Shown here one piece after another: positions 1 to 41,900 of a stretch of 64,000 nucleotides of DNA (the first letter of the stretch is position 1; each line of letters starts with the position of its first letter). The DNA is from Pomacea canaliculata (Eukaryota > Mollusca > Gastropoda > Architaenioglossa > Ampullariidae). The notes under the pieces were generated by a model, which worked only from the letters and a program-made list of their open reading frames with translations, had not been told where the DNA came from and searched no databases. The position numbers were made by a program, and so were the translations under genes. The stretch covers positions 13,268,515 through 13,332,514 of the forward strand of contig NC_037600.1 in NCBI RefSeq assembly GCF_003073045.1, in the 5' to 3' direction.

Positions 1-283
1 CTTGGTATTAAATTTTAAACCTTATTATACATGCAAACATTCATTCTCCAAGCACAGCAGTATGCCGGCATATTCGTGGGACAGAGTGGATGTAACAGAC
101 CTTACCTAAATGTTACTCCATAAAATACCGAGAACATTTTCGCCAACGCATTCAGATATGAAATAATTCTTCTATTTATAAATAATGTGACAGAAGTCTA
201 CAGTATGCAGTGAAGGTATTTAGGCCAGATGACACGAATACAATGTGAAAGTATTTACAATGGGTGTTCGTTTTTTTTCCAGG
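1..283 (+). other. 5' flank and intron end of Cys-rich gene 1
   Basis: No coding signal is seen. The segment ends in a strong pyrimidine tract followed by CAG at 271-282, a 3' splice site immediately before the first usable ATG. A 5' non-coding exon upstream, possibly outside the window, is inferred. Confidence 0.4.
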
Positions 284-1350
284 ATGACCATGCGTGAGGT
301 TAAAAGGGTTTGTGGTGGAGTCGTCTTTGATGCCCTGCTTCTGTCCCTCATCATAAGCCAGTGTTTTGTCACATCAGAGGCTATTGGTGTTGACTTCAAG
401 CGATCTTCGCAGGATCTACCACCGAAATGCTGGGAACAATTTGAGAGAGTTGCAACAGAATGTCCCTCTCAAGATTTACCTAAAGACAAACTGTACTGGA
501 GCAAGTTATCCGCTGTCTGCTGCGGGAGTTACCCAAGAACAACCCTGCATTGCCAGCAAAGTTATACAGACACGGGTGGCCTGGCCATCTTTCCCGCCTG
601 CCTGACCAAAACAACAGTACCGATGGGGCATTACGGGGTGCTCAGAGAAAACGCCAGTGGGTACCCTGAATTTACAACTCAGCCGTGCGGTAGCGACAGT
701 TACGAGGACGTTGACAGACCGTCAGACAGGCTTTACCACCCGTACTGCACCAAGCAACAAAACAAACTGCGGTGGAGAGGGACAGCAACTCTTCTGTAGA
801 GGAGGACCGAGCGAAGACAATCGGTGCGTCTGTGGGGAAGGGTTCAGAACTGCGCCTGACAGCGACACCTGTCGTCGAGGCCACTTCCACAACGGGGGAT
901 GCACGTGCGTGCGGGAGGAATGCCCTCAGGGAAGGACCAGAAATATCTCTGACCCGAACTCTGACCTCAGCTGCGACGACCTGGCGACGGAACCGGATTA
1001 TTCCTGTTACGATAGGGTGAGGCGAGAGCCCGCCAGCGCAACGACCGTACAGAAGACGACTACACGTCCCAGTGTCATCACCAGTCGTCCCCCGTCACCG
1101 GCTCCTGGTGATGGTGGAAATGGCGAAAGCGATGACACTGAAAAGACACCCGGTGAAGGTTTCTTTGACTGGCGCCTCTTCGTGGGTTTGACTGTTATTT
1201 TGGATTGCCCTGGTAGCAGTTGTCGTTGTTGTTGTGTGGTGCACGTGCAAGCGACGGATCTGTCGTGTGCTTGAGTCGCTGAGAGTCAAGATTAGGCGCG
1301 AAACGACACCAGCGCCGCCACCCACAGGGGCAGCTGAGTCGCTTCTCTGA
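284..1350 (+). CDS. Cys-rich single-pass membrane protein, copy 1 (unrecognised family)
   Basis: I do not recognise the family. The start at 284 is the first ATG after the splice acceptor at 281-282 and gives a signal peptide (hydrophobic core ALLLSLIIS, cleavage likely after TSEA). The mature ectodomain has 18 cysteines at the positions shared with the copies at 11584 and 17834: an N-terminal module with the landmarks VCC, LHC, PAC and QPC, then an EGF/TNFR-like module with LFC, CVC and CTC. A Thr/Pro-rich stalk, a Val-rich membrane helix (WIALVAVVVVVVW) and a basic tail (CKRR) follow. Reading the whole protein needs two frame changes. Each is a single extra base relative to copy 2: one near 758 between the two modules, one in a T run at about 1197-1200 at the start of the membrane helix. 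The span is 3n+2 bases, which fits two extra bases. It is a probable cell-surface receptor or ligand; function is unknown. Sequencing error is more likely than decay, because the other modules are intact. Confidence 0.75.
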
Positions 1351-2800
1351 CACATGAATATAAGAAAGATCCAGAAAGTCTTTTTTTTTTAAACCTGTGA
1401 ACACATCTTCGTCGAACCTACAGAACCAGGGAGCTCTTGACATCTGGACACTGTCCAGAAGACAGTTCCCTTATTTTCCTGTTCAGCTGCTTCGGAAGAT
1501 AACAGCAACTACACTCCAGGAAAGTTTGTGTTGAAAAACTTTTATCTATAGCAGGAATTTGGCGATGGTGCGACTTACACGAGGTACTCCTTTTCTTTCT
1601 AAATCAAATGGTATTTGTTTTAGCTACCTGTGTGTTGTAGTTCGCACATGAATAGCCTTGATGTAAGTTTGCTTTTCTTTTTTGTTTTTTTATGATTGTC
1701 AATTGCCCATAACTTTTCTTTTTTCTTTGTTCATATTTTTTATTGTTGACATCTTTGAACGCTGCACCTTTGTAGCGAAATTTAATTTCTAACTTTTACT
1801 TTTGTGACTAGAGCACCTTCCATGTTCAAATTTTCCCATTGGGTCGGATGCTGTTAACGGCTTTCTTTTTTGTGCTTGTGAACTATCAGTGGGCACACAT
1901 GCGTGTACACTCAAATGGGAATAGGAGAGAAAAGAATGTACCCTTGTGTGTGTATGTTTTTGTGTTATTTCTACGAATATATGTGGGCATGTTTGCGATT
2001 TGGAAAAGAACAGTAGAGGGGTGGGGTGGGGAGGCTGCCCAAAACCGGGTCCCCTGGCGAGGAGTTGTTGCGGTCTTATGCTCTCGAGGAAAAACATATA
2101 AACTAACATGTTTGCGATGTATGCAGTGCACGGCTAATGTTAGTAATAAATGTGTGATTGTAAATAGGAAATGAAATATATATGTAAGAGAGAGAGAGAG
2201 TAGTTCGTCATTTCACCATATGAGATTCTGAACATTGACATGCAAATCTGTTTGTATGAGATAAGTATGCTACTGGCATGATCAACCAGAAAAAATCGAT
2301 TTGTATTGTATATATGTATATGTATGCTTTTGTTAATACTTGTATATAAATTCTGACATGGTCATTTTGAGTCTCCTTTTCTTTCTTTTTTTTTTTTTTT
2401 TTTTTTTTATTTTTGGTAGGCTGAGGACCATCTTTATAAGAACCTTCGCCGCATGAATGTTTTCAGTTCAGAAGCCATCCATGTGAAATGATACTGTGTT
2501 ATTATTGTGTAATTTCCTGTGCTGCAAATGACAAAGACTAATAATTGTGTACAAACGATTGGATCAATGTATTTAAAGCTCGTGCTGTTGAAATGTTTTC
2601 TACTGTTTGCTGATACTGGTGGTTATGTTACGAACGTACAAGAAAACAAACTGCATTGCTACACTGTGTAATGAATCAATAAAACTTTTTTACATTTTTA
2701 TCATTGTTATTATAGTGCTGGTATGGATCGGGTCTGGGCTGCAACGCATCGAAAGTACCAAGCACACATTCTTGCGTTTATCAAACTCTTGGTGAATAAA
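1351..2800 (+). other. Probable 3' UTR of Cys-rich gene 1
   Basis: AT-rich non-coding sequence after the stop at 1348-1350. It contains a T-rich run at about 2386-2409, a short GA run near 2190, and AATAAA polyadenylation signals at 2678-2683 and 2795-2800, either of which could end the transcript. ORFs here on both strands are low-complexity and not supported. Confidence 0.45.
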
Positions 2801-5800
2801 CACATTTTCTTTCAGAATGTCTCTTTAGACACCTCAGTTCACCAGGAACATCTGTGACCTTAACACCAATTCTTCTGACTGATTTATTTTTAAGTTAACA
2901 TTAACGAGGAAGAGAATTTGTGAACATCGTCGGCTTTGCATTAAAGAACGGGTATGCAAGTCGATGTGTTACAAACTCGTTCAAAATTACTACATCCAGA
3001 AAACGCAGGACTACATTATTCTAAACAGAGCTGCCAGACTGTTTTCAAACATTCATTCACGTCGTTCTTGCTCGTTATTGGTTGTAACAGCCAACCCCTC
3101 AACGCTTTGCACCGTGGGGTTTCTTTTATTGCCATCGACGCCCCTTGCGAGGATGTTTTTCATTCACGAAAATGCAAAGAAACATGGCCCTGCCCCTACC
3201 CTCCCCAACTAGCACACAGCGGGGATTTGAACAAATGACAGCAAGCAAACACTTCTTTTGTAACCAGATGTTTAGCTCGTTAAACACTTGCTTTGAATGG
3301 TGTGTGTGAACCGCAGCGCTGTTTTAAGGGCCACATAAAGCCATCTTGGTAGGGCACATTACCCTTTCAAGCTTTCTGTGTTTTTTTTTAATTGAATACC
3401 GCTCAACTCTGGCGCCCGCCCTCGCACTCCTCAGCTATCAAAACTTATTGTAAGCGCGGCTTGAGGCACTCATGAAATCATTTTCCCTGCCCTTCATTGA
3501 GTTCGAAATGAACTCTCTCACTCCTCTCTCTCCCATGTATCACACCTGCAATAGCGTTAGCAAAACTCGCGTTGGCATCTCACTTTTAAAGCCTAACTTT
3601 AAATACAAAATTCTTTCGATGTGAATGAGAATAATTCATTGAGATACTCATTTCCCGATCTAAGCGAACCCCCATCCCCCCGTCTTTTCCTTTTTCGAGA
3701 TACACGCCCACTGTTGTGTGAAGAGCTGATACTGTTGTTATTGCCCGTCTCTAATAACTCATTAGCACGTGACAGGTCAAGCCACTTACATCTTACAGGA
3801 GGAAGGCGGTTAGCGCGGCGGGTGGATCGATCTCCTTCCTCCAGCAGATCGATGTCGCTAAATACAAACTTAAGCCGTTATGGACAGTCAATGGCTTCCT
3901 GCGTAAACAACAAGCACTGGAAAAAAAACCTTCCAGGTGACAAAACTAGTCTTGTTACCGCAAGGCGGCAATGGGCTGACAAGAGATGTATACACTCGCT
4001 TGAGTGCCTCTTCATTTCGTCTGATTGCACTGAACGAAATATTTTGAAGCAGTCCGAGGTATGCAGGTATAAAAAAAGATGGAGGTTAGAAGTTTCACTT
4101 CATAAGATAATTTGTGAGATGGAAGCTTACGTTTTATTAACTGGTTATCAAGTGTAAGTAACACTGAGTTAAATGCACAACAACATGACACATCAGTTTC
4201 TTCGCGTGATAATGTTAAGAAATACACAGTAGTTTGTCAATTGTCAATAAAATCCACAACATGTTCGTGGAAGGGCTAGGCTGACTTTATTTCCCTCGAG
4301 ATCGAGGAAGCACAAATTCAAAGCTCGCCTTAGTCTGTGTCCACAAAACATCACATGCCCACACTGCGATTTTTTTTAAAGGGAGGTCAAAGGTTACGGG
4401 ATTGGATTCCACTTTCCAAATGCTGTTTTAGACATAGTAAACCACTTACTGTTCACCACGGACGCACGAGACACCGCCAGGAAGGCGTGGTGTGCGCCTG
4501 TTTGACAAGTGGAGCCGTGGTTATGAAGCGAGCCAATACTTCCTTCGAGGTCAAAATGGGGAACTCAAGCCAAACCACCTCGTTTCCGAAGTTGTAAAGC
4601 AGTGTCCAGAACCCGTAGTCACTACTTCATGTTTCTTGACCCAAGGGCATGTTTGCTACTGATGTATTATTACCACTCCAGTGGTCAAACTGCATCTATG
4701 GGATCTGAACACTGCTGTATAACTTGGGTAACAAGACTCCTTCAGTTCTCAACGTTGCCCTAGGATAACGACTTACCCCTGCTTCATAATACGGCTGTAA
4801 GAAGAGCAATCAATAAAATCATATGTTCACGGAGTCTGGGGGCAGGTGGCACCGGGTCGGCGGTGGGCTGGGGAGATGGTGTGCGTTCGGATATTCTAAC
4901 CAAAGAGGACAACTCCTCTGTATTCTAACTCACTCATCCCCAACCCCCAATTACAACACCCTTCCCACCCCCTCTAGTGCATAATGCCCCTAAGTGGAAA
5001 CACTTTTAAACCAATCAACGAACGTGAAGTCAGCACCTTCCCTGCCCGTTGACCGCGTGACTGGCTCTAGTGTGACGAAATTCACGCCTGCCAGCCCTGG
5101 CTGTCTCTACTCTACGGGCAGTGGCACAGCTCATGCATTCTGCGTAGGTCTGGGCCATGGCTTCACATCGCATCGCGTACATCATCGTGATGTCAATATC
5201 GAATATCGATAGCTGATCCAGCAACAGTTGATAAAAAGGTTCCTGTTTACCAGTTATCTTCAAGCAAGGTGAGGAAAAAAATTTTATTTTCAAAATTTCC
5301 TTTCACAAACTTGGCACTGTGATATACAGATATCTTTTGCCATAAGCAGTGGCACAAACGACAAACACGACGACAGCTGACATTGTCGTCTGATCTCTTG
5401 TTTACCTGATTAGCGTCTCACTCAGAGCTCGGTTCTCAAAGCTAAACTGACAAAAGTCGACAGCAACAGTTTTGCCGGGACGACTTTGTCTTCATCTTTC
5501 GTGCACTCTTGCTAAGTTAGAGGTCAGGGTTCACGTCTACGCCAGCGTCAGTGTCAAACTGCTTTACCAAAGCCTTGTCAACTGTTCTTTATTTACTAAA
5601 TGAGTCCCACACGTTCTGGTAAATAATAGCGTTACTCGTCGTATTGGATGACAGAGTTAGTGCGCCTTTTTACAGCTACAGCCACAGCCATTGAAATCAT
5701 GTTTGACATTTTCATGTTATTAAACAGAGCGCTGGTGGCGCGCGCTCGCGCTCGTAAAAGGTTATTTAGGGAGAGAGAGGAAAGACATCTTATTAAGAAG

Positions 5801-7552
5801 GGAGCTTTCCCTAATAATCACACCACACATCAATTATACTGATGTATATCGCAAGCCACGTACAAACAGAAATTGTTCTCGCTTCATCTCGACTGTCTTG
5901 GTCGAAGCCTCTAGTTCACTGCTTCACATCGGCCCGTTGACCGAAGTTTATGTAGAAGATGGAAGACAGAAGACATTCACTGTTGGAATGGAAAGGCATG
6001 GAAGTACCCTCGTGATCTTATGTGAGGAGAGGTAGCGAACGCGCCACCGTCATTCACAAATGCACCGATCGCTCCCTTACGTCCATTGGCTGGTGTTCCT
6101 TCCACGGCGCGAAGGCCTGCATGCTGCGCAGTATGCCGCGGCCATGACCGAGATTGGTGACGTACAGGGTGTCTCGTCTGTCTGAGTGTGTCGGAGTAAC
6201 CGCCCACGCTTCTACACTTTCCTGAACCAGCCATTTTCAATTGGCGACCTGAGCGGGTTGTGTGTGGAGTGATTCCAGTCGCACACGTTTGACGTTTCTG
6301 GATATCTGAAGGGTTAGTCTTCTCTGCTTACAACAACATTCTTGCGTTATTCCACTCGTTCTGTCGCTCTGTGATCCCTCTGTATGTAAGATGACCTCGC
6401 CCTCCGTTTAGAGAGGAAATTATCAGGAAGACTCAATTCATCTTGAGAATGTACTCATCCATTTATTATCAGTTCTTAGTTCGGTAGCTATAACACCGCC
6501 AACCCGCCAACGCTATAAGTTCGTAAACCAGAAGAAAAAAAAAAAAAGGGGGGGGGGGTAAAGGCTCAATCAGGAGCGTTTGTGGCGTCCAATGTGTACT
6601 TTTCATGATAAATAAGATACCATAATGCTGCTGTACAGTACGTATCTTTCACCCTTTCTCCCTCACACACATTTCCATACTATGCACCAGTTAAGTCAGG
6701 GGTTTAGATTTTTAAAATTTCAAAAGTTCTCCGGTCTTTGTTCCTTGAAGTCGTTTTCTCCGACCGGCAATCAGCTCCTTAGCTGTTTTTCAACGGTAGT
6801 TTGTTGAGTAATTTGCTTTCTGTGGGTTATGTTTCCTTACTGCCATGAAAATCAATCAAACAATTTTCTGATTTCTATTAGTGTAATACACCCTACCTGG
6901 CCTACCATATCAACACATCACACCTTGCAATGTGTCAGCGAGTGACACTGATCGCGCTCGCTTGCTCGCGCGGCCTTCGTCATAGGGCACGTGGTGGGAT
7001 TGAGGGAGTGTCGCCACAACCAGTAGGACTCGATTAGTGCGCGGCTACCGCTGGATTGCAACAACAATGTCGAGAGCCACGTGATCCTACTGCCCTTGTC
7101 ATACCGTGTAACAGTTAATAACGCATCAGATTCATGCTTTTCGTCGTCAACAGCCATCTACGTTTGAGGTGAGTGTCATTCCCGACTTGTAATTTTAATC
7201 CGCAGACTGCTGCACTGTGATCTTTGGAGAAAATTGCAGGTTTTTCAGAGCAGTTAAATATCTATAATTATATGTTGTCGTTGAGCTGGGTGGATGGCGT
7301 GAATTGAGGCTTAAAGGAGACAACGGCGAATTATTCATTAGCCCGGGTCTACTGTTCCCTGCTTTACAACTTCAGCTGACTCGTAGTAACACGAAGGAAA
7401 CACGTGGTCGATCGATCGGTCATGTCGGCCCGACGCCGGCTTCCTTTCCACAACCGACCCACACCCCGACGATCAAAATAGTTCTCGCGGCGAACTGAGT
7501 CTCCCGACAAAACGCAAATACGAAAGGTTACGAAAGATAACGAAGGCGTGAT
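2801..7552. other. Intergenic stretch, no supported gene
   Basis: No ORF has recognisable domains or paired splice sites; the longest (178 codons at 3621-4157) looks like chance. An A/G homopolymer pair lies near 6535-6559. A weak LINE remnant near 2964 is listed separately. Confidence 0.5.
2964..3080 (+). mobile_element. Possible LINE reverse transcriptase remnant
   Basis: The translation IQKTQDYIILNRAARLFSN resembles the block of non-LTR reverse transcriptases that reads roughly LQ-x-x-QN-x-AAR-L-x-x-N. Only about 35 residues are recognisable and there is no second block to confirm it. A chance match is possible. Confidence 0.3.
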
Positions 7553-7560
7553 GTTGCGTG
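7553..7560. repeat. hAT target-site duplication, left copy
   Basis: GTTGCGTG directly abuts the left end of the hAT element and is repeated exactly at its right end (8844-8851). Eight base pairs is the standard hAT duplication length. Confidence 0.85.
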
Positions 7561-8843
7561 CGGGCCCGTTCATAGCCCCCGCGGGGCCCGAGGCAAAGGG
7601 CATGTGCGGGGCCCTCACGCCACGATCACACGGTTTTAGTTGGGATCTACTAAAGTCACTTTTTTCCTCAGGGTTATCTCGTCTTTTATCATTGACAGCA
7701 CGCTGCATACACATTACAACATAAGCCTACGATTAATTTATTTGTATCGTTTGTCAATAGGTTACAACGAATGGAACCCTACAGTCTGCAGTCGTAGTTG
7801 AGGTTGAGTTGATGGGTTTGCATCCGCCATTAAGTAACACACAACACACACACCGACACACGTACATGCCAAAAAAGACATTCAGATTTAGTAACCAAAT
7901 AACATAGCAACACGTAAACATACGGCATAATATAACATGTAAGTTTTCAACACTAAAAAATATTTACAAGGGAACTTTCCTGGCCTTCATTGAAGCAAAA
8001 TCATCAATCAGTTCACTGAAATCTAATTCCCGACAAACACTGTTCTCGATGGAGAGTATGGCCATGTTCCTCAGCCGATCTTGGCACATCGTTGACCGCA
8101 GGTAAGTTTTAATTAATTTCAGCTTCGAGAAACTTCGTTCTCCGGAAGCTACTGTCACAGGTATTGTGAGGGCAATTCTTAAGGCAATCCATAAATTCGG
8201 AAAATCGAATGATCGTCCTTTAATGGAGAGGAAAGTCAACATCTTACGAAGGTCTCCATGCACAGAATCTGGAAAAACATATTTCAATACGTCCATTTCC
8301 TCGGCAAGCATGTATCCATCGACATCTCGGCTTTCTCCATGTTTTAACACATCTTCCTAATTCTTCCCACATGACTTCAGCACCGACTTTGGCAACTCCT
8401 TGAAGTTGTAGATAAATCCAAAAATTTGATTATGATTCCTTAATTGTTCAAATCTTCTTTGAAGAGACGCAGTTGCTGTATCCACTATCATGTTGAAGCA
8501 GTTGATGCGGAAATCCTCCTGGGCATTTCTTCCTCCTACATCTTCTCCTTCGTATTGTTCGTAATCAAACATTCTCCTTCTCTTTCTAATTCGTGTAGCT
8601 TTAAAAACTGGTTCTGTATCCAAATCCTCTGCAATTTCTCTTGCATTAATCAGAGAGCTTGAAAATCCATTTTGACGATAATCTGTCAGCCATGTGCAAA
8701 TGCCCTCCAAACCATTTAGTGCATCTGAAAAATCCGCAGTCGGATACGGCTGACTACACTTCCATATGCCTAGTTACCATATCAATCAAAAGCGCGGGGC
8801 CCTAGGCAGATGCCTCGTCCGCCTGCCCCTAAGCACGGCCCTG
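7561..8843 (-). mobile_element. hAT-family DNA transposon (internally shortened)
   Basis: The element is 1283 bp and is bounded by identical 8-bp duplications (GTTGCGTG). Its ends are imperfect inverted repeats: CGGGCCCGTTCATAG on the left and, on the other strand, CAGGGCCGTGCTTAG at the right, matching at about 12 of 15 positions. Both ends continue into the GGGCCC-rich subterminal sequence typical of ZMYM-type hATs. The minus strand still encodes the C-terminal part of the transposase. At 1.3 kb it lacks the N-terminal two thirds of a full hAT gene, so it could move only if a complete copy elsewhere supplied transposase. Perfect target duplications argue for a fairly recent insertion. Confidence 0.88.
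7964..8710 (-). pseudogene. hAT transposase C-terminal fragment
   Basis: On the minus strand, 8710-8357 and 8350-7964 share one frame and are separated by a single in-frame TAG at about 8354-8356. The N-terminal piece contains the helical segment upstream of the dimerisation domain. The second piece carries the hAT C-terminal dimerisation signature, with VASGERSFSKLKLIK followed by LRSTM and a run of hydrophobic heptads. This domain is found in ZMYM1-like and 52-kDa-repressor-like transposases. The BED zinc finger and the first catalytic Asp blocks are absent, so the protein cannot be an active transposase. It lies wholly inside the hAT ends at 7561-8843. Confidence 0.8.
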
Positions 8844-8851
8844 GTTGCGTG
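8844..8851. repeat. hAT target-site duplication, right copy
   Basis: GTTGCGTG, identical to 7553-7560, begins right after the terminal CTG of the element. Confidence 0.85.
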
Positions 8852-9324
8852 TATTCTAAATATAGCCTCAAAGCAGAACAGGGGCTGTTGCAGTGGAACG
8901 GGCGGGGCGCAACGCAATGGGCAAACACGAGAAGTGTGAAGCTGGATGAATGAAAGCTACAAGATACGATCAATGAGCGGCTGTCAACATCTGCTTATCC
9001 ATACCATTCACTGCTGCGCGCGAAGATTCTCAATTATGATTTCAGGAACTAGGAATTCCTACTGGGTCGGTGGGTAAATGTTTATCAGTCGTCGATGAGG
9101 TTTGTAGTTATTTCACTTTGTTATTTCTGGTCGGCGTTTTTGAAAGAGGGTGAGAAGGAGAGAGAAAGAGAACAAAATCGTCTTGACTTTCCGATATTAC
9201 AAAATTGGAAAGGCTATCAAAAAGGTTCGCTGGCTTGCACGTGAGGTCTTAGCCCACCGGTCTCAATGACCTCAATTCAGATCGTTATAATTGAAGTGAA
9301 CTCGTAGGACACCAGGACCCCCTA

Positions 9325-9556
9325 CTCGCAACAGTCGACCGACTCTGTCGAAGACTGTTCTTCAAGGCACCTTGGACGGAGGCGGTGGTCAGAGGAGAAA
9401 CTGGCTTACGACTGTCAACGACTGGACTGGTCGTTTGTACAGGACCTGCTGACTATTGAGTGAGTGCCGGACCCTGTCAGCTGCAGCGTCTATCCATATG
9501 CTCTCCTCAACAACCGGTACCAGTCAAGGGATGACAGACTGAGTGATGAATAAAGC
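9325..9556 (+). mobile_element. LINE 3' end (reverse transcriptase C-terminus)
   Basis: The translation carries the end signature of a common invertebrate non-LTR retrotransposon: KTVLQGTLDGG, then a QRRNWL block, then NDWTGR and a PQQP-like block. Comparable elements read approximately KTILQGT-(E/D)GG-R-x-x-RQ-x-x-W-x-x-N-x-x-(D/E)WTG. The blocks lie in more than one frame, so the copy is decayed. It ends near an A-rich AATAAAG at about 9549. Upstream sequence is not recognisable, as expected for a 5'-truncated insertion. Confidence 0.65.
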
Positions 9557-9820
9557 CGACTTGCACATGAGACTGGCATAAAATTTGCTTTCACATGCAG
9601 CACAGCCTTGGTGTCTTTAGAACTCTCGTCTGCTTCCTAAAGTCGTACAGTCCATCATTAATCAATCATCGGTCATAATATTCATCCTCCTTCTCATCAT
9701 CATCTCATTCACTTGGTCATCGTCTGGTCATTTTTCTCTTTCTTTTTATAATTTAGTCACCTCCCTGTATTTCATTCCGGTACCTACTAGGCACATCCTC
9801 CCCATTGCACCCAGCACACT

Positions 9821-9828
9821 GTTTTATC
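9821..9828. repeat. Target-site duplication of foldback element, left
   Basis: GTTTTATC occurs here and again at 10518-10525, exactly at the two outer ends of the inverted repeats. Confidence 0.7.
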
Positions 9829-10517
9829 CGTGTGCGGACGTTTTGCCGACGGACGTTTCTCCGCCGGACGTTTCGGAGCCGGACGTTTTGTCGACTGGAC
9901 GTTTCGCCGCTGGACGTTTCGGAGTCGGACGTTTTGCCGACTGGCTTTTCGCCGCCGGACGTTTCGCCGCATTATGTCAGAGAGAGAGAGCTTACTTACT
10001 TCTCAAAGAATGAAAGTAACTACTAGATTACACAATAATTCTTTATTTCAAACAAATTTTACACACAGACTTCACAGACAGTTCACTTTGATTGTCACAG
10101 ATTATGCACAACAGCTTTGAGATACATTGATACAATGGCGAGAGAAATGTGTGAGCTAATGGTTCACATGAGGAGGGATAGTGAGAGAGAGTTCACTGAT
10201 ACATTGATACAATGGCGAGAGAAATGTGTGAGCTAACGGTTCACATGAGGAGGGATAGTGAGAGACAGTTCACTGATACATTGATACAATGGCGAGAGAA
10301 ATGTGTGAGCTAAGGGGCGTCACACACTTGACTTCGGCTAAAGGTCCCGCGTGAAATGCCGAAATGAAGTGCCCCGCGCCGAAACGTCCGGCGGCGAAAC
10401 GCCGGTCGGCAAAAGGTCCGGCTCCGAAACGTCCAGCGGCGAAACGTCCAGTCGACAAAACGTCCGGCTCCGAAACGTCCGGCGGCGAAACGTCCGTCGG
10501 CGAAAAGTCCGTGTACC
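9829..10517. mobile_element. Foldback / long-TIR non-autonomous DNA element
   Basis: About 130-145 bp at the left (9829-9971) recurs inverted at the right (about 10372-10517). Each arm is itself built from roughly 15-16-bp subrepeats of the type GGACGTTTCGCCGCC, so the arms can fold back on each other. The 689-bp element is bounded by an 8-bp direct repeat, GTTTTATC. The interior has no transposase. It holds 2.5 copies of a 77-bp tandem unit. The duplication length fits hAT (also P or Merlin). ORFs crossing the arms on both strands are by-products of the GC-rich subrepeats. Confidence 0.8.
10121..10313 (+). repeat. 77-bp tandem repeat inside the foldback element
   Basis: Units start at 10121, 10198 and 10275, each opening GATACATTGATACAATGG; the third is cut short near 10313 just before the right arm. 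Differences between units are few (for example taatgg versus taacgg). Confidence 0.9.
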
Positions 10518-10597
10518 GTTTTATCGCTGTAGTTCTAGGACTGACGGGTACCAGGCACAGAAACTATTTTTTGAAACAACGTGATGCAAGCAAACGC

Positions 10598-10665
10598 ACT
10601 GTAGCTGTGTGGTTATTGAGCTTCACCGAGGGCTGATTCGAGGCCCACTAGGACCAGAGACTCCG
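10598..10665 (+). mobile_element. Possible tRNA-derived SINE head
   Basis: TGTAGCTGTGTGGTTA resembles a pol III A box and TGATTCGAGGCC, about 35 bases on, resembles a B box. The downstream body is not recognised. Confidence 0.35.
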
Positions 10666-11583
10666 TCTGTTGACCCACCAGTAAGTGGGTTACCTGTTGT
10701 CCTTCAGGCTAAGAGAAGTAGTAGAGGACTGGGTTCTGATTCTCAGCGCGTTGCCCTGATATAAAATTTTCCCCTTTTCTGTGTGTGTGGTCGTTCGTCA
10801 AAATTGTAACGGAAAGTATTTCTTGTTTATTTCTCTCTCTCTCTCCCCATATATATATATGGGATCTCTCAAGTATATCACAGTGAATTTTAAAGGCAAT
10901 AGGCAAACCATGACTCTGCACATTTCTGTGTCTGTTAATATTAATTTTTTCCTGCGTTTTTAAAATTTACTATTACGGCAATTTATAACACAGCAGCGAT
11001 CTTTTTCACCTTTCTCTTTACAGAAGTAATTACAATTAAGGTCAATGCCGTTTATAAGAAGTATTATCAGTAGTCTATTATTTAGCTAACGTGATTTTTT
11101 TTTCAAATTGTTATCATAAAGAAACTGTAATTGCGAGTGTACTTTTACTCTCGAGGTCTTTAATTTCCGAGAAAAATTCACTTGCACATCGGGTAGAGAA
11201 TGTTGTAGCTTCTGGGCCGTACCCATGAACAAGAGGTAAAGCAATAACACCAACAGCATTGCATAAATGCGTACAGATTGTATAATGTTGCTATACTGCA
11301 GATAACCAAAGAGGTCCCACCCACTGCCTGAGGATAGTCCCCGCTTCCAGGCTGTCATTAAAAAGACAAGATGTAATAAAATCTCTTTTCAACAGCTAGG
11401 TTCCCAGATAGAGATTTTGCTATTCAAAAAGGAAGTTTCTGTCTTAGGTTAAAACATTCTATGTGGCTATTTTAAACATCAATCAGTCAGGCTTGCAAAA
11501 TGCAGTATAAAAACTTTTGTCCTGATTTTTCTTTTTGCAGAATAGCTACCTGCAATAAACCAGCCTCCGACAGACGAAAGCAG

Positions 11584-12615
11584 ATGAAAATGAAACAGAT
11601 AACTTTAATTGTTCTTGTTTACTTCGTACATGTGCTCGAGGCGTACGGTGTTAACATTCACAGGACGACACAAGCTCTCACACCTGAATGTCTGCAACAT
11701 CTCCAACAAGGGGAGTGTCCTCTCAGACATTTACCACAAGATGAAGAGTACCGGGTCAAACTGAACCGCATGTGCTGTAGCCAGTATCCCGGGACAACGC
11801 TGCACTGCCAGCAAGGGACGGCTGACACAACTGTCACTGTGTTCCCGGCTTGCCTACCGAGAACGCGCGTGCCTATGGGAAACTATGGGGTTTTGGGAGA
11901 AAAAGGTGATCCAGAATTTGAAATTCTCCCTTGCAATAGGGAAAGTTACGAAATGTCAGATCGACAATCAGACGATCGTAATATAGAACATTGCTCCCAC
12001 CAAAAAACAAGGTGCAGTGGAGAAGGTCAGCGTCTGTTGTGTCGAGCAGGTCCCACCCGAGATGATCGCTGTGTGTGTGACGACGGGTACAGACCCCACC
12101 CTGACAACGCAGATTGTCGGAAGGGCTATTTCACAGACCTCAGCTGTATATGCAGACTGGACCCATGTCCCTCGGGCATGGCGAGGTATATTCCCAGACC
12201 ACAAAACGACAGCTGTGACGACACTGATATTGAAGTGAATTACACCTGTCGGTGGACTGGTGTACCCGGGGAGAAGTCAAGCGATGATGACAAACCGCAT
12301 TCTGCTGTCGACACCGGTCAGTTGCCAGCGAACACGACTGAGGGCAGTAGACAAATGTCTGGCGGTGGTGTGTGTGTCGAGTATTTCGGCATTTGTTTAT
12401 CGGTCGTTATACTTGTGGTCGCGGTGACTGCGCTAGCTACACTACTCTGTTACATTAAACGGAAAAAGATCCGCAGACTCTTTGATGACACTCGGCGAAA
12501 AGTCTGCGAAAGATTTTCGAGATCAGACGCAAGAACGACAGCTAATGATGCTGCAGAGACCCCGGATAGTGAAACAGAAATGTCTTCAATGGTTTCCAGT
12601 TCATCAACACCATGA
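11584..12615 (+). CDS. Cys-rich single-pass membrane protein, copy 2 (intact)
   Basis: This is the only copy readable in one frame: 343 residues from the ATG at 11584. A splice acceptor (TTTTTGCAG, ending about 11540) lies just upstream, so the coding part is one exon. A signal peptide (MKMKQITLIVLVYFV) is followed by an ectodomain with 18 cysteines: singles at PEC and GEC, MCC, LHC, PAC, PCN, then EHC, TRC, LLC, CVC, ADC, CIC, DPC, DSC and YTC. The even number suggests nine disulfides. The second half looks EGF- or TNFR-like (RCVCDDGYRPHPDNADC), but no named domain can be assigned. After a Ser/Asp-rich stalk comes a membrane helix (LSVVILVVAVTALATLL), then KRKKIRR and an acidic/Ser-rich cytoplasmic tail. 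It is a type I surface protein by topology. Ligand and role are unknown. Confidence 0.85.
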   Translation: MKMKQITLIVLVYFVHVLEAYGVNIHRTTQALTPECLQHLQQGECPLRHLPQDEEYRVKLNRMCCSQYPGTTLHCQQGTADTTVTVFPACLPRTRVPMGNYGVLGEKGDPEFEILPCNRESYEMSDRQSDDRNIEHCSHQKTRCSGEGQRLLCRAGPTRDDRCVCDDGYRPHPDNADCRKGYFTDLSCICRLDPCPSGMARYIPRPQNDSCDDTDIEVNYTCRWTGVPGEKSSDDDKPHSAVDTGQLPANTTEGSRQMSGGGVCVEYFGICLSVVILVVAVTALATLLCYIKRKKIRRLFDDTRRKVCERFSRSDARTTANDAAETPDSETEMSSMVSSSSTP

Positions 12616-13057
12616 CATGATCGTTCACATACAGACAGTGTCAAACAGAAGATCCAAGGAGACGCTAAGAGTAAATGTTGTAGGTCATGAAAGCTGACCT
12701 AACCGTTGTTTTGTCGAGCGCCTGCTGAATGTGCTGCCCAAAGGACTGCTGGGATATCACACAAGATAAAAATGGAAACGCTCTGACGTATTCCTAATTA
12801 TTCGATGTGAACTAAAGACTTTAATGCACAAAACATTGACGTACCTTTGGAGATGTGATGACTTAAAGTAATATATTGTAACAATCGTTCATGACAAAAA
12901 CTACATATCAGCATGTGTTAGCTTGTGATGTGAAATGTACTACAGAAGCTGAGTTGTGATCTGATGGCCAGGAATCAAAGTAGACGTCAGTGCATATTTT
13001 TCTCCGCCAATTCTCTGTGTCTCTCTCTCTGACTTTTTTGGGTGGGAGGTGGGGTTT

Positions 13058-13096
<39 letters not shown>

Positions 13097-13978
13097 CAGA
13101 GAGAGACAGAGGCAGAGAGAAAGAATATTGAATGTGTGCCTGTGTTCGCGCAAGAAAAAGTGTGTCCGTGTGTAGGGGTGGGAAGGAGAGAAAGATTGTA
13201 GATTTCGTGAGAGAGAGAAACTGATAGCCAAAGTAAGCTATCGTTTGTAACATTCTCAATAACGCAGCACTGTCAAATTTCCTATGCTGGACCTTGTTAG
13301 TTTTTCCAATTTGATATTAAAAAACTTTTATTTGTAACATCTTATGTCTTTTTTTATTTCTGCAACAGCTAATTTTTACAACAGTTATATATAACGTTTC
13401 GATGTGTATGTTACAGATAAACTACGGTAGTCTGCTATTTCTTTAAAATAGAAGTGGAAATCTTATACCTTAAAAAAGAACATTTTCACGCACGTTCATT
13501 GTATTTCTCCCCACCCACCCACCCTCTACACACACACCGTTATCCTCCTCCACGAGTCGAGGTTCGCCCAGCACAAGGGAGACAACCGCTAACGGAGCTA
13601 AGAGACTTTCATTACGTCGTTAACTCCCCTTGACAACATTATCGGACGTTCCTCAGCTATGAATCAACTCAGATCAACACTTAAAAACGGTCATCAAGGG
13701 TACACTCGAAATAACAAGTCCCACCGCGCTTGGGAAGGCAAGCCCCAAACGACGGACGTGTGCATTTGTCGCGTGTAGCGACAAATCCAGCCGCTCTCAG
13801 TGCCGAACAAACAACACGCACACGAAATAACGCTACAAATACATATTTAATGAAAATAAAATTTAAAAAAACACCCCACCCGAAAAAAAAGAACGAATGC
13901 CTCACAAATGGGTGTTATCTGACCTTACCCACAATTCCATACAGTTCTGTTCTTGCAACAGAATTGAGTAATAATTAA
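12616..13978 (+). other. 3' flank of copy 2 with microsatellites
   Basis: No gene is supported. A GT run at about 13059-13079 passes directly into a GA run to about 13122. The ORFs there on both strands (for example 12908-13259) are microsatellite artefacts. Confidence 0.5.
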
Positions 13979-14112
13979 GTCCCCGTTTCTACAACGGAAA
14001 TATCCACAACACGTCCTCGTTTCTACAACGGAAATAGCCGCAAAACGTCCTCGTTTCTGCAACGGAAGAGTCCACAACTAACACGTCCCCGTTTCTACAA
14101 CGGAAGTATCCA
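13979..14112. repeat. Tandem repeat, four units of 34-38 bp
   Basis: Four consecutive units start near 13979, 14013, 14047 and 14085. Each contains GTCC(C/T)CGTTTCT(A/G)CAACGGAA followed by a short variable part ending in CCACAAC or similar. Confidence 0.9.
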
Positions 14113-17100
14113 GGCAGTCCAACCTTCCTCCATGATGGTCGTTCCTCTCTGCTCACCGGTCTCTGCTTTTTCCTATCTCTACCTCCTTACTTTACCCCCC
14201 TCCACCCACCCACCCCCCCAAAAAAAAAAACGTCACAAAACAAATTTGCATCAGACTTTATTGACGCAACAGCCCCCTCCCTTCCCTCTCGGACTAGAGC
14301 TCTGGCTGAGCCAGCATGCGACACGCGACAGTATTCTTGCCCAAGCTATTGTCACGTGACACATAAAATTGGTCTTCTGCATTATGGGTGAAGTGGAGGC
14401 GGGAAGCGGGATTAACGAAGGAGAATTTCAGCACCGGGCAGTTCGTAACCATCTTCTTTCCGTTGGTCAAAGTGCAATGTCATTTGCGGTCATTTTTACA
14501 CCAACTCTTCCTTTGACACCGCTGGACGTGTTCGACGCCATCATCTGTCGATTCTACATCAGAGCAGTTACAAGGTAAGTGCTATCAAGTAGCTGCTTTG
14601 TAACTGTGGCATTAAGTCTGCAACGCTTGGCCACAGCTGTTAACTGTTGAAAGGAATCTGGTGTGCATACAGAGAATTAATGTGATATCAGGAACACCCG
14701 AGTACAGTCATCACGCCCCCACTCCCTTTTTCCTTCGTGAGGACATGCGTGCTAGGAGAGAAGCAGTTTGCGTATCCTACGGTGTTATTCCAGACTGATG
14801 CGACAGGCAGGCACGTGCGCGCGTTTGGGTGGAGTCACGTACCGAGAGGCACTATTTTACAATCGCGGCTGTGAGACAAGATTCAATTCTGGTGGCAGTC
14901 AAGTGTGAATGATGACGTGGGTGTCGATTGCGGTGTCATAATAACGATCATAACTGAACTCATAAAACGCAGATCTTCGTGGGGATGCGGACTCCATTAG
15001 CTGAACACGAAAGCCGAACTGATCGTCAAGTTTACAATAAACGTTAGTTAACAGATGACAACATGATAAACATGAATTATGTGCCTGGAAGAAGAACTAA
15101 TGTGTCAATATTTGTGATTACTCAGGATATTTCTTAAGGAAGTGGATTATGAAGCCGGATCGGAAGGTTTCGAATGTAGACAGAGTTCGAAGACAAAAGG
15201 GAGAAGAAGGAGCGCTTGTCGAATTTCTCCAATTTCATGGATGGCACAGAGAGGACAACATAATCAGACCGAAGAGAATGATTTGGGTGGTAAGGCTAGG
15301 CAGGTGAAAAGTAGCACAATGTGGCGATCGTGTGATCAATGCCAGTAAAGCTCGCGAGGAAAGGGTGTAGCGTGGTCCGCTTTTCGCCGAGGAGTACAAC
15401 ATCAGCGACATTATTCTGAGCTCTTTCAAGTTTGTCCAGCATGCAGTAAGATCAAAGAGTAAAAATGCAGCCGGTACAATTAAAAAGGCTCAAAGAACTT
15501 TCAGTTTATTACTTTATCTAGCTGTACAGATGTGAATCGCGCACACGCATACGCATGCACATATATATATATGTATGCGCACCTACACAAACGACTTTAA
15601 ATTGGTGGGCGGTGCAAATAACAAAATGAGTCCTCTTTCAATTACTGTAAAAGTCCCTCTCAGATGCATAGTAAACAAAAGGCAGTCGTCAGGGGATGTT
15701 GGAAGAAAAGAAACGTGGGGAAAGAAAACATTTTCCAGCATGAACAGATGATAATGAAACAGTGAGTTGACTGAACGGTCACTTGTTAATGTGAATGACT
15801 ATACAACAACAGAATTTAGATATAGGTTTGTCCTTACGGGAAGTAATAAGCTGTCCTTGGCTGCACTGACATTTCCAGTGTGCATAATATATCTAGCCCG
15901 CCTGCTTCTTGGAAAAGAATCCGGAAAAGAAAATATACTTCCAGGAAGTCGTAAAGCGAAAGTACGATATTCCTCCAGGTAATCTTAGTAATCGCAATGC
16001 ATGCCACATCACTCGAAGTTAAAATGAAAGATTTGATATGTTTTTATCTTAAAAATTTAGTACCCGATATAATGAGATCTTGCTTTAAAATGATCGCATC
16101 TTTGTAGCTTTGTGTAAAGTTTTGTTTCCTAGGACAAAATGCCACAATCTTATAAATCCACATGGTTTAAGGTTCTGATATTTTGAGGTTAAAATATAGA
16201 TCACAGTTTCCTGACACCAGCTATGCAATTAATGCAACATTTTTTAGAAACAGTTGTAGCTTTTACATTCGAAATTCGCGTGATATATCTTCCTTCTTGA
16301 AACAGATCGTTTCCTTTCAGGAATGTCCCCCACCCCCTTTACTATGGCTCACTACATTATTTGAATTGAGGACGTAGATTTATATAGATAAGACACACAC
16401 AGATATACAAAGTACTCACCTAATCCATCAAGAAAGACGATCCATCCTTTACCATTCTTTCACTTCTTTAGTATCCTAGACATGACAGACAAACTTCAAA
16501 TTCAGTGTACTCCGTATGTTCGTGCCTTCAGGTCGACGACGTGGTTTCCCAGAACTGTTCACTTTCGAAATGCTAGAGATGTGTGAGGAATTACTGGATA
16601 TGCCACGCCCGTCCTGATGTCATTCACGATGTGCTCTGTTGTTTTATAATGCCTAACACACGATAAAAAAAGTTCTGGTGAACTTTCATCGTCAGCAGTT
16701 TCAGATCTGCGCGTAAAGATACAACACAACGGTTGCTTAGCTCGTTACAAGGTGGTATTATTATTATGTTAATTTATAGACCACTTTATCCCACTATCAA
16801 AGATTTCTCAAAGCGCTTGAGGACAAAATACAAACAACATATACAGAAGCACGCAACAGAAAACCTTATGCTTGTAGAAGGCCTTATCGCAGGATGGAAG
16901 GTATGTAGTTGGTATTTGCTCCAACTTCCACAACCTAATTTAAGAATTGTAAGCAAGGCTGCAAATGCTCCTGTCCACACCACGGTACAGTAAAGATGGC
17001 TGTATATGGCGCCCTGTCACTGCCTCTCACACAAGGTCAAGGCGCTTCAAAGCTTTTGGCGTGATGTCAGAATAAGCTGACGACATAAAGAATGACGTAG

Positions 17101-17833
17101 GTTGTAGAAGAGTGTGTAGTCCACGTCACAAGGTTGCGAGTACATAATCACATATTATACATAGTACACACAGTAATGTAATAGTGAAGTATATAGAGTA
17201 ATATAATACATATAGTACATACAGTGCATACAGTGCATATAATACACACAGTACACACAATATGTCGTAATACAGTATGTATAGAATACAATATACATTA
17301 TAATATACAAGCACACATAGTACACACCGTACCGCTGCGGGCTTCAGCTACATCAAAAGAACGTGTGCTATTCTTTTACCCATCACCCACACTAACTCTC
17401 TTATTAAAAAATAAATTTCACTTTGCATTTTATAAAAGCTGTACGTTTCGTTAACTCGCTAGCATGTTTGACCTTAACTTTACCTTTGACTCCTGCTAGC
17501 TTTAAAGGTAATTGCTGACAAATTCTGAACAGTGGTGCTTATTAGCTTTGCAAAAAATGCGCTGTGATTTTTAAACCATTATTTCCAGTGCGAATTGCAT
17601 CATGTTCCATAGCTTGTTGCTTTTATAAAACTTGTTGTTTTGTCTTATGAAATTTTCATCCTCTTGGCGAGAGGGGGGGACCCCACGTAGACTCAATGAA
17701 CATGTTTGTGTTCTGTAAGAGAACTGCTTTCGATCTCTGTTTCAGATGCAGCTCTAACTTTAGCACCAGACACGGACTGCACATTACTTCGGGATTTTAA
17801 AAAAATCAGCAAATTGCCTTCCGGCTTCTGATA
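14113..17833. other. Intergenic stretch, no supported gene
   Basis: The only hint of an exon is a 64-codon ORF from the ATG at 14384 that runs without a stop into a good donor (CAAG|GTAAGT, exon end 14574); it has no recognised domain and no partner exon. Other ORFs lack support. A splice acceptor (CTGTTTCAG, about 17744) precedes copy 3 and probably begins its coding exon. Confidence 0.45.
17150..17330. repeat. Degenerate ATA/CA-rich tandem repeat
   Basis: Repeated variants of ACATAGTACACACAGT and ACATACAGTGC fill the segment; the unit drifts in length (about 9-16 bp). ORFs on the complementary strand made of YVLYVLY-like residues come from it. Confidence 0.7.
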
Positions 17834-18860
17834 ATGCCAGTCCTAGTTTTGTTAACATTTATAGTGTGTTGCACAACATTTGTAAACTCCATCATCTCAA
17901 GGACAAGTCAACAGCTGCCGGGAGACTGCTGGTCAGCATTCAAGGGACGCAGTCAGTGTCCTGACTTCGGGACAGACTCCAGCAAGCAGGCATGGGAGAG
18001 ATTAAACAAAACATGTTGCAGCGGTTTCGCAGGTCAGGATCTTCACTGCCAATACAGAAGCTTTCCTAATGGAACAGAAGTTCTGTACCCAGCGTGCGTG
18101 AAGACACGCCGCATTGAGCGAGGGTACACTGTGGAACTCGTCATAAACAATGCAAATTATCCCGAGCTGAAAGTAAACCCCTGCAACGAGGAAATTTTAC
18201 GAGCCTCAGGTGAGAAACTCTTACGAGGTCGTCTCACCAAATGCGTGCTCTTTTCAGAAGCATGATTGCCAGACAGAGATAGGACAAATGCTGCTGTGTA
18301 AGGGGACCACGACAGAGGACAGCATGTGTGTCTGCGACAGCGGTCATGATCCAGTGGGGGAGAGACAGTGCAGGGAAGGTTTCAACCACGATGCAGCGTG
18401 TTCTTGTGCGCCAGCACCTCCTTGCGAGCTTGGCAAAGTTCGGAACATAACCCGCGGGCACCCTTTAGGTGGAAGCTGTGGTGCTGTCAAAGTTGTAACT
18501 GGCAATTACACATGTGTATCAGCTGTGGATGCCAAGACCACCACAACCATCAAAGAAGAATCTACACTTCAGGATGAGAGCTACACGACAACGCTTTCAA
18601 CTTTTAATGTTACTGCTGGGGATATTTCCCACACCATACCTTTCTGTGGAAATGTGTGCTTTCTCCTGATCGGTATTGGAGTAGGAACACTATGTTCAGT
18701 AGTTCTGGCACTAACAGTATTAAAAATCTTGAAGAAGTTTTTTCCGGACTGCCTAAGGCCTCTTCAGAAATTTCTTACAACCCCTGCACCGACTCCCCAA
18801 TGCAATGGAGCAGAAGTCAGAAGAATGACTGAAGACGATGACAACAGCACGGACGTGTAA
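17834..18860 (+). CDS. Cys-rich single-pass membrane protein, copy 3
   Basis: Third paralogue. The ATG at 17834 lies about 90 bases after a splice acceptor near 17744 and opens a signal peptide (MPVLVLLTFIVCCTTFV). The N-terminal module has GDC, SQC, TCC, LHC, PAC and PCN. After a frame change near 18206 the second module continues with NAC, HDC, LLC, CVC, RQC, CSC, PPC, GSC and YTC, giving the same 18 cysteines as the other copies. A Thr-rich stalk, a membrane helix (VCFLLIGIGVGTLCSVVLAL) and a lysine-led tail ending NSTDV follow. The span is 3n+1 bases, which fits one extra base. A GTGAG...TTTTCAG segment at 18210-18257 looks like a 48-nt intron, but removing it would not change frame, so it does not solve the break. 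It is the most divergent of the three. Confidence 0.75.
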
Positions 18861-38918: not shown

Positions 38919-41900
38919 ATGCTTGACAAGGGCCTCCTTGACCTGTGGGAATCGTGTCCTGACGAGCCGCCTGACGAGGGCTTCAGCTGCTTTTGGGCCG
39001 CGAGGACTGAGAGAGCGGCAGCCATGTATGCGAATTCGGTCGGCGACGTGACGATCCTGGCTTTGATGGTGACCTGCTACATGTTCTTTGGCCTGCTGGG
39101 CAACATCCTGGTCATCTACGTCTACCTGCGAGCGTCGGGGGTTCTGCCCTTCAGCAACTTTGTGGTGTGTCAGGCCGTGCTGCACTGCCTGGTGCTCGCC
39201 ATAGTAGCGCCGTACAGCGTGGCCTACGAGTACCATGCCGTCACGCTCAGCGGCACGTGCATGTCCTTCGAGTTCTTGCGCCACAGTCTGGTGCTCATCG
39301 CCAGCATGTTCATGTGCGCCACGGCCTTACACTGCTATCACTCCCTTCAACGTACAGTGGTAAGTTTTGTATACTGAATCCTCCTCATCCTCCTCATCCT
39401 CATCCTCCTCCCCATCATCATCATCACACCATCACCATCTATTCGCCATCTACATGATGTTTGTCTAACTCCTTCACCACCTGCAGTTTGTTCCATTGAC
39501 CTCCCACACCTGCAGGCTCCAGGTGAACCTGCGCAGTTCCGCCAAGCGCTGATGACGACCATCGTGCTGGGGGTAATCCTGTCTGCCCCCTCCCCAACCC
39601 TGTTCACGTCCGCCAACTTCGACGGCCTGGCGGAGGCGGAGGTGGATCTGGCGTCGTCCCTCATCAACAGCTACGAGTACTCCACCTACGGACCCTCCTA
39701 CTGCCGCTTTACAGTCGCCGTGCTGGGCCTGGCCTGGGCCATTGTGTATGAGGGCGCCCTCTTCCTCACCTTCGTCATCACCTTCAGCGTTGCTCTGGTC
39801 CTCTACACCCTCTCTATTCTCAAGGTTAGCAGTTGCCTGATCTTAACCGCGTTTGGCTATATTTAAAGGGCAGCACGAGTGCAGCATTTTTCTTTATGAT
39901 CTTGCTAATAAGAAAAAAAAAAAATCAATTTCCGGCCAGGACTACTATCTGCTGGGAGTTAACTCACTCTATGACTACGGGGGTTAACTCTGGGTACCCG
40001 GTCTCTCCCTACATGTTTAGTCTTTATTTAGAAGCTTGGTGAATATTTGTGACCAAAACATATACCGTACAGACCTTGGTTTTGTTTTTCAGGTATATCT
40101 CTTACTTTATAGTAAAACTGGTTTTGTTTTACTTTGCTCACGCCTTCCGCCCTTCTGTTGCTATAGCTACGGCGCGACCTGCAGCACGGCGAGAACTCCG
40201 CGCAAGCTCCGTTCATCAGTGGACTGGACGGACGCGTGCTGGAGGCTTCGCACGTGCACAGCGCCTGCGTCATGCTGACCATGGCCACCGGCCTGACCTT
40301 CCTGCTGTGGTTGCCGGTGTGGCTATGCATCTTCGGCCGCCTGAACCTTCTGGCCCTCAGGTACTGCTTCCTCTTCTCCTCCATGCTCTTCCCCTTCGTC
40401 TACGCCATCTTCAACAAGCAGTTCCGCAAGGAGGTGTCGCGGCACGTGCCTTTCTTCCAGTGGTGCTGCATGGTTGGCAGCGTGGACAGCGACGTGGGGA
40501 CCAGAAGGGAGGAGTCCGCGGATTATAAGCAATATCTGCAAGAGATGGCGGCCCGAAACAAAGAGACGGAGGAGAGATTATGTCGCGAGAGAGGGACGAG
40601 GAAACGCAGAGGATGCAGGTACATCGGCTTCTACAGCTGCAGGAAAAGCAGCGTTTGAATCAACTAGCCGAGATCGAGAGGAAGGAGAAAGCGAGGCTCC
40701 TGCAGGAGCAGCAAGAAGAAAAAACAATGGAAAATGCAACGAGGTTAAAGCTGGAGGTAGATTTGCTGATAGAAGATAGGGAGAAAGCAAGCAGCGAGGA
40801 ACAGGAGAGGGTGGAAAGAGACCAACAGGAGCGAGAGAGGCTGACCAACAGGCCAGGGAGGCGCTTGAAAGACTGGTCAGAGAGAAAGAGGCACAAATGC
40901 TGCAAGAGGCAATGGAACGGCAAGCTAGAGAGGAGGCAGAGAGACTGAAGAGAGAAGAGGAGGAAAGAAGGAGGAAAGCAGAAGAAAACAGCGCGGATGG
41001 AACAAGATCGCCAGATCGTCAACGCACAGATAGATCAAAGAGGCTTGGAGAGGATCCGACTCGAGATGGAAGAACGCGAAAGACATGATATTGAAGAACG
41101 GAATCGGTTGGAGAGACTGAAAAAAGAGAGGAAGGAATATGAAAGGGTAGAAATGGTAAAACGTGAGAGGATAGAGAGGGAAGAGCTAGAGTGGATAGAA
41201 AAAGAACGAGAGAGACAAGAAAAAGAAGAACTCGAGAGACAAGGAAGAGAAGCACTCAAGAGACAGGAAAGGGAAGAACGAGAGACAGGAAAGAGAAGAA
41301 CGAGAGAGACGCGAGAGACAGGAAAGAGAAGAACGCGAGAGACAGGAAAGAGAAGAACGCGAGAGACGGGAAAGGGAAGAACGAGAGAGACAAGAGAGAG
41401 AGCGCGAGAGACAACAAAGAGAAGAACGCGAGAGGCAAGAGAGAGAAGAATGCGAGAGAGAGAGAGAAGAGCGCGAGAGACAAGAGAGAGAAGAGCGCGA
41501 AAGACAAGAGAGAGAAGAACGCGAGAGACAGCAAAGAGAAGAACGAGAGAGACAACACAGAGAAGAATGCGAGAGACAACACAGAGAAGAATGCGAGAGA
41601 CAAGAGAAAGCAGAGCGCGTGAGACAGGAAAGAGAAGAATGCGAGAGACAGGAAAGGGAAGAACGCGAAAGGCAAGAGAGAGAAGAGCGAGAGAGACAGG
41701 AAAGAGAAGAACTCGAGAGACGAGAGAGAGAAGAGCGAGAGAGACAACACAGAGAAGAGCGAGAGAGACAACACAGAGAAGAATGCGAGAGACAAGAGAG
41801 AGCAGAGCGAGAGACAGGAAATGGAAGAACGCGAGAGACAGGAAATGGAAGAACGCGAGAGACAAGAAAGAGAAGAACGCAAGAGACGGGAAAGAGAAGA

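What the first reader, a model, noticed from the sequence alone, without database searches (positions are those of the whole stretch)
284..18860. Tandem family of three 18-cysteine, receptor-like membrane proteins
The genes at 284-1350, 11584-12615 and 17834-18860 share a signal peptide, 18 ectodomain cysteines in the same order, one membrane helix, a short tail and a single coding exon behind a splice acceptor. The number and order of cysteines are kept while loops, stalks and tails diverge strongly. This is the pattern of surface proteins under selection on exposed loops, for example recognition or ligand-binding proteins. The module pair (CC...LHC...PAC...PCN, then LLC...CVC...CxC) matches no domain I can name.
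Basis: partly seen in the sequence, partly recalled or inferred. Interest (0 to 1): 0.78.

Follow-up and report, generated by a model that had tools for sequence, protein, structure and literature searches.

The report
Tandem TNF-receptor-like snail gene cluster
The three snail genes are one end of a run of about 22 neighbouring genes for surface proteins built from a TNF-receptor-like part, an unrecognised cysteine-rich module, or both; what they do is untested.

Summary
Real, with three corrections. (1) Only copy 2 (11584-12615) is one open frame; copy 1 changes frame twice, copy 3 once. Assembly error seems likelier than decay, unproven. (2) The three are the right end of a 211 kb, one-strand array of about 22 genes on one contig of Pomacea canaliculata: 11 with both modules, 7 with the N-module only, 4 with the C-module only. 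(3) The C-module can be named in part. A copy-2 ectodomain model (pLDDT 88) lists TNF-receptor-superfamily chains in 50 of 50 shown PDB rows (best CD40, E 1.4e-4). A profile comparison with canonical TNFR repeat pairs of the same genome scores 25.1, reached by 0 of 180 permutations. But single TNFR repeats score only 16.9, EGF 18.1-18.5, and Pfam's TNFR model misses the family. So: TNFR-like, not a proven member. The six-cysteine N-module matched no Pfam or PDB sequence; its fold was not searched alone. Three recent two-module pairs show purifying selection (dN/dS 0.27-0.44). No death domain seen; tails 0-55 residues. Best guess: short-tailed ligand-binding or decoy receptors.

The parts
281..282 (+). 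putative splice acceptor AG before copy 1
   Evidence: pyrimidine fraction 0.87; 3.8% of random places reach 0.86
284..766 (+). copy 1, first frame: hydrophobic start, N-module (404-685) and start of the C-module
768..1187 (+). copy 1, second frame: rest of the C-module (TNFR-CRD-like) and stalk; frame change near 750-768
1198..1350 (+). copy 1, third frame: membrane helix and short tail; frame change near 1187-1200
11539..11540 (+). putative splice acceptor AG before copy 2
   Evidence: pyrimidine fraction 0.80; 10.6% of random places reach it
11584..12615 (+). copy 2, intact 343-aa gene: hydrophobic start, N-module, C-module, stalk, membrane helix, 55-aa tail
11665..11931 (+). copy 2 N-module with its linker: six cysteines C-C-CC-C-C, no relative found in Pfam or PDB sequences
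11929..12255 (+). copy 2 C-module: TNFR-CRD-like (cysteines 7-18)
17834..18193 (+). copy 3, first frame: hydrophobic start and N-module
18213..18860 (+). copy 3, second frame: C-module, stalk, membrane helix, tail; frame change near 18190-18213

Best explanation
A tandem array of TNF-receptor-like membrane proteins in the apple snail Pomacea canaliculata, found only on one contig of its genome. The two-module ectodomain has a six-cysteine N-terminal module, not recognised in the libraries searched, followed by about two TNFR-type cysteine-rich domains, a variable stalk, one membrane helix and a tail of 1-55 residues in which no death domain was found. Shown: homology within the array, its size, coding constraint in three recent pairs, predicted fold. 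Inferred: descent from TNFRs. Inferred and untested: they bind TNF-superfamily or other ligands at the cell surface and, lacking a recognised signalling domain, act mainly as decoy, competing or co-receptors; turnover of N-only, C-only and two-module copies would retune binding.
Against: PF00020 hits none of the members scanned and 0 of 49 genome matches lie on C11. Against single TNFR repeats the profile scores only 16.9 over 11 columns (0 of 60 permutations), below the EGF profiles (18.1-18.5). VIA Z stays under 8; Foldseek TMq is about 0.3 with large rmsd. The nematode TNFR model reaches only E 0.12 in 1 of 13 rows, while EGF-type models and TIL reach 0.03-0.07 in 1-2 of 13. One member alone gives weak PDB sequence hits to factor H and heregulin, not to TNFR. 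The CxxCxxC core of canonical CRDs is reduced to two cysteines. No ligand, expression or binding data.
Confidence: 0.66

Rival explanations
1. The C-module is EGF-like (in copy 2 C-x6-C-x8-C-x9-C-x-C-x12-C fits an EGF spacing), so these are EGF-type surface proteins.
For: Weak Pfam matches to EGF-type models: EGF_2 E 1.6, EGF_4 0.034, FXa_inhibition 0.053, cEGF 0.066; heregulin E 0.02 for one member. hhalign against EGF profiles scores 18.1-18.5, above most of their own controls and above the single-repeat TNFR profile.
Against: None of the Pfam matches reaches its curated cut-off. No EGF structure among the 50 shown Foldseek rows.
Confidence: 0.14
2. A snail-specific cysteine-rich family whose resemblance to TNFR is convergent, used as recognition receptors (immune, gamete or self recognition) with no tie to TNF signalling.
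For: Searches of 5.8 billion proteins returned only Pomacea proteins and proteins from unnamed contigs (word-limited search); the N-module has no recognised relative; tandem gain and loss of copies.
Against: The profile match to canonical snail TNFR pairs involves non-cysteine columns.
Confidence: 0.16
3. Copies 1 and 3 are pseudogenes, so two of the three genes in the window are dead. (Not exclusive of the others.)
For: Two frame changes in copy 1, one in copy 3; 4 of 11 two-module genes have frame changes. The change in L013 goes the other way from those in the window, which one-sided insertion errors do not explain.
Against: All three changes in the window have one direction, and the 18 cysteines and membrane helices survive. 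L010 differs from L013 by nine 1-2 base gaps, all extra bases in L010 within 145 bp of an 873-base span with 848 identical positions, which looks like insertion errors. The paper on a matching assembly reports PacBio reads, smartdenovo and Pilon in a highly heterozygous snail (PMC6129957, passages).
Confidence: 0.3
4. Signalling receptors that recruit adaptors through the short tails, rather than decoys. (Not exclusive of the others.)
For: Tails of copy 2 and of L002-L005 are 19-55 residues, with a tyrosine-containing stretch in L002-L005.
Against: No TRAF motif recognised by eye (motifs recalled); L009 and L011 have a one-residue tail, and 4 of 7 N-only genes examined 0-12 residues.
Confidence: 0.3

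Closest known systems
TNF receptor superfamily ectodomains, nearest CD40/TNFRSF5; also HVEM, Fas, 4-1BB, TNFR1
   Same: Membrane topology, tandem cysteine-rich domains, cysteine order of the form C..G(Y/F)..C..C..G....D..CxC..G(Y/F); best structural matches
   Different: Extra N-terminal six-cysteine module that does not match the TNFR profile; reduced CxxCxxC core; not recognised by PF00020; no death domain found; coding part apparently in one exon
Canonical TNFRs of the same genome (C3:37.797-37.839 Mb, C1:15.391 Mb)
   Same: A profile of their repeat pairs aligns in register with the C-module
   Different: Those at C3 carry about ten PF00020 matches each and lie on other contigs
Expanded TNFR set of the Pacific oyster (PMC4346834, passages read)
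   Same: Molluscan TNFR gene number raised; the paper speaks of receptors with and without a death domain
   Different: Those are recognised TNFRs; no N-module is mentioned in the passages I saw
TRAIL decoy receptor cluster of mammals (recalled, no call)
   Same: Tandem TNFR paralogues, some without a signalling tail
   Different: Ligand known there, unknown here; no N-module

Membership tests
TNF receptor superfamily | CRD fold of the ectodomain | tested here: met
TNF receptor superfamily | match to the curated CRD profile PF00020 | tested here: not met
   No match in the family members scanned and none of 49 genome matches on C11
TNF receptor superfamily | profile similarity to canonical TNFR repeats above controls | tested here: met
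   Repeat pairs: score 25.1, E 4e-4 for one comparison, 0 of 60 full and 0 of 120 cysteine-preserving permutations; single repeats: 16.9 over 11 columns, 0 of 60
TNF receptor superfamily | canonical six-cysteine CRD spacing with CxxCxxC core | tested here: inconclusive
   Order fits but the core has two, not three cysteines
TNF receptor superfamily | death domain or TRAF motif in the tail (present in many, absent in decoys) | tested here: not met
   Tails of 0-55 residues, no Pfam death domain in the proteins scanned; TRAF motifs sought by eye only
TNF receptor superfamily | binding of a TNF-superfamily ligand | not testable with these tools
   needs a binding assay; the genome search for TNF ligands did not complete
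EGF-like domain proteins | match to an EGF profile above its cut-off or clearly above controls | tested here: not met
   Pfam EGF matches all below cut-off; hhalign 18.1-18.5 over 12-28 columns, reached by 2 of 60 and 3 of 60 permutations
Any named family, for the N-module alone | match in Pfam or to PDB chain sequences | tested here: not met
   its fold was not searched alone, so a known fold is not excluded

The most novel reading that the evidence does not exclude
The N-module is a new six-cysteine domain (C-C-CC-C-C) that a snail lineage joined to TNFR-type CRDs and also uses alone on short membrane-anchored proteins, and the array is a gain-and-loss recognition locus. In addition, C-only genes carry a long, apparently coding part before their CRD, which could make TNFR-like receptors with an intracellular N-terminal domain (this needs a first hydrophobic segment that I see by eye but that stays under my threshold).
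Probability: 0.25. Interest if true: 0.72.

Novelty: new variant of a known kind. Interest (0 to 1): 0.5.

Why it matters
Molluscs lack antibodies (general knowledge), and how they diversify surface recognition is open. An array of about 22 diverged genes built from TNFR-like domains and an unnamed module, of which the one protein that came with a name is called 'uncharacterized' (LOC112575090), is a concrete, testable locus. It may also show a blind spot: Pfam's TNFR profile misses receptors whose CRD core has lost a cysteine.

Full report
Where it is. The window is G000:C11:13268515-13332514 of a 440,159,624-base, 24-contig genome. A protein on a contig of the same 24,344,826-base length is named 'uncharacterized protein LOC112575090 isoform X3 [Pomacea canaliculata]' (P0006); its 317 residues agree by eye with L004 of the array. 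The species is therefore taken as the golden apple snail. The published assembly of that snail has 440,071,717 bases and a longest chromosome of 45.4 Mb (PMC6129957, passages); C1 here has 45,418,568 bases.

The observation. Translation in three frames shows copy 2 (11584-12615) as one 343-residue open frame, copy 1 in three frames and copy 3 in two. Homology between the copies is far beyond chance. Eighteen cysteines in the same order are found in all three when the frames are read piece by piece. Copy 2 has a hydrophobic start, a membrane helix at 270-288, three N-glycosylation motifs and a 55-residue tail. At the same hydropathy threshold copies 1 and 3, L002, L003 and N-only gene 13153217 also show a hydrophobic start; L004, L005, L009, L011, P0002 and three other N-only genes show only the later helix, their start being hydrophobic by eye. 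Splice-acceptor-like sequence precedes copies 1 and 2, not clearly copy 3; that the 5' exons are non-coding is inference.

Are copies 1 and 3 dead? Seven of the 11 two-module genes are open; copies 1 and 3, L010 and L013 are not. L010 carries nine 1-2 base gaps against L013, all extra bases in L010 and within 145 bp, in an 873-base span with 848 identical positions. The three changes in the window all shift one way; the one in L013 shifts the other way. The paper on a matching assembly describes PacBio reads, smartdenovo and Pilon in a highly heterozygous animal. I judge assembly errors more likely than decay, without proof.

The array. Scanning 264 kb with 11 queries gave 20 places, all on the + strand. 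Profiles of the two modules over 304 kb (13028515-13332514) found the N-module in 16 open frames at E 2.6e-17 or better, in 13110612 at 2e-4 (its translation has the six cysteines and a hydrophobic end) and in fragments of L010 (3e-4, 9e-4), and the C-module in 15 open frames at E 3.8e-11 or better; apart from these genes no hit was better than E 0.27. This gives 11 two-module genes, 7 N-only and 4 C-only, 22 in all, the last ending at 13287371. Whole-genome searches with copy 2, an N-only gene and L009 found only this cluster, apart from one C13 place at E 0.1. A block of at least 62 kb (it starts at the edge of what I compared) is present twice, about 100 kb apart: 16 of 22 aligned pieces of 600 bases or more are 87.7-95.5% identical, the other six 76.8-83.2%.

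Constraint. Three pairs of open two-module genes have dN/dS 0.27, 0.44 and 0.41; the ectodomain 0.20-0.37, the rest 0.48-0.72. Pooled, 52.5 amino-acid changes at 2128.8 sites stand against 40.5 silent ones at 598.2 sites, one-sided Fisher P 2e-6. Four N-only pairs give 1.09, 0.75, 0.33 and 0.64 and a C-only pair 0.97, on few changes. In C-only genes the long frame before the CRD may also be coding: 13086216/13186224 have equal length and dN/dS 0.37 over 193 codons, on only 14 changes; the other pair gives 0.55 over 381 codons that include a repeat, so its alignment is uncertain.

What the N-module is. Twelve aligned copies share six invariant cysteines, C-x8-C-x18-CC-x9-C-x14-C in copy 2. It is predicted as two helices and beta hairpins with good confidence. 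It occurs without the C-module in 7 genes; the 4 of these examined end in a membrane helix. It matches no Pfam model significantly, no PDB sequence and not the TNFR profile.

Mechanism. Shown: cysteine-rich ectodomain, membrane anchor, short or absent tail (sequence only). Inferred: ligand binding through the CRDs, capped by the N-module. The absence of a recognised death domain, the tail of one residue in L009/L011 and of 0-12 in the N-only genes examined point to decoy, competing or co-receptor roles; copy 2 and L002-L005 keep 19-55 residues and might signal through adaptors. No call bears on ligand, tissue or phenotype.

Disulfide hint. Cysteines 10 and 17 are present together in 7 of 13 C-module rows, absent together in 6, never mixed. 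This fits a bond between them, though the rows are related and two of them are short.

Novelty. TNFR expansion in molluscs is known (oyster, PMC4346834, passages). In the passages found, the genome paper mentions TNFR only as part of apoptosis, and the 2026 Pila/Pomacea paper has no 'TNF' in its main text (PMC13336756, word search). I found no report of this array, in a library that lacks most subscription journals. Hence a new variant of a known kind.

Noticed in passing
window 7964-8350, - strand: Remnant of a hAT transposase (Pfam Dimer_Tnp_hAT, E 7e-15); the genome paper's abstract reports a recent explosion of hAT-Charlie elements.
   Followed up: partly
window 32843-33679, + strand: Open frame of a major facilitator transporter (MFS_1 E 3.5e-16), probably one exon of a longer gene.
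   Followed up: partly
window 38919-39377 and 40236-40658, + strand: Two open frames that look by eye like parts of a rhodopsin-type receptor; Pfam gave no match at E 0.01.
   Followed up: partly
window 41292-42440, + strand: About 48 copies of a 24-base repeat (79% matches) in Arg/Glu-rich open frames.
   Followed up: no
window 9835-9970 and 10379-10511: A 46/15-base minisatellite that seems to be present twice in opposite orientation, around a 77-base tandem repeat.
   Followed up: no
C11:13086216-13087256, 13186224-13187264, 13104827-13106530, 13211661-13213907: C-only genes with a long in-frame part before the CRD; the last two carry a short repeat whose number differs between the two copies.
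   Followed up: partly
C3:37796784-37797944 and 37837823-37838986: Two neighbouring canonical TNFR genes with about ten PF00020 matches each in one open frame (the second read).
   Followed up: no
P0002 (345 aa, contig of 4075 bases): Intact relative of copy 2 (45% identical) of unnamed origin; the similarity begins upstream of the start codon of copy 2.
   Followed up: no
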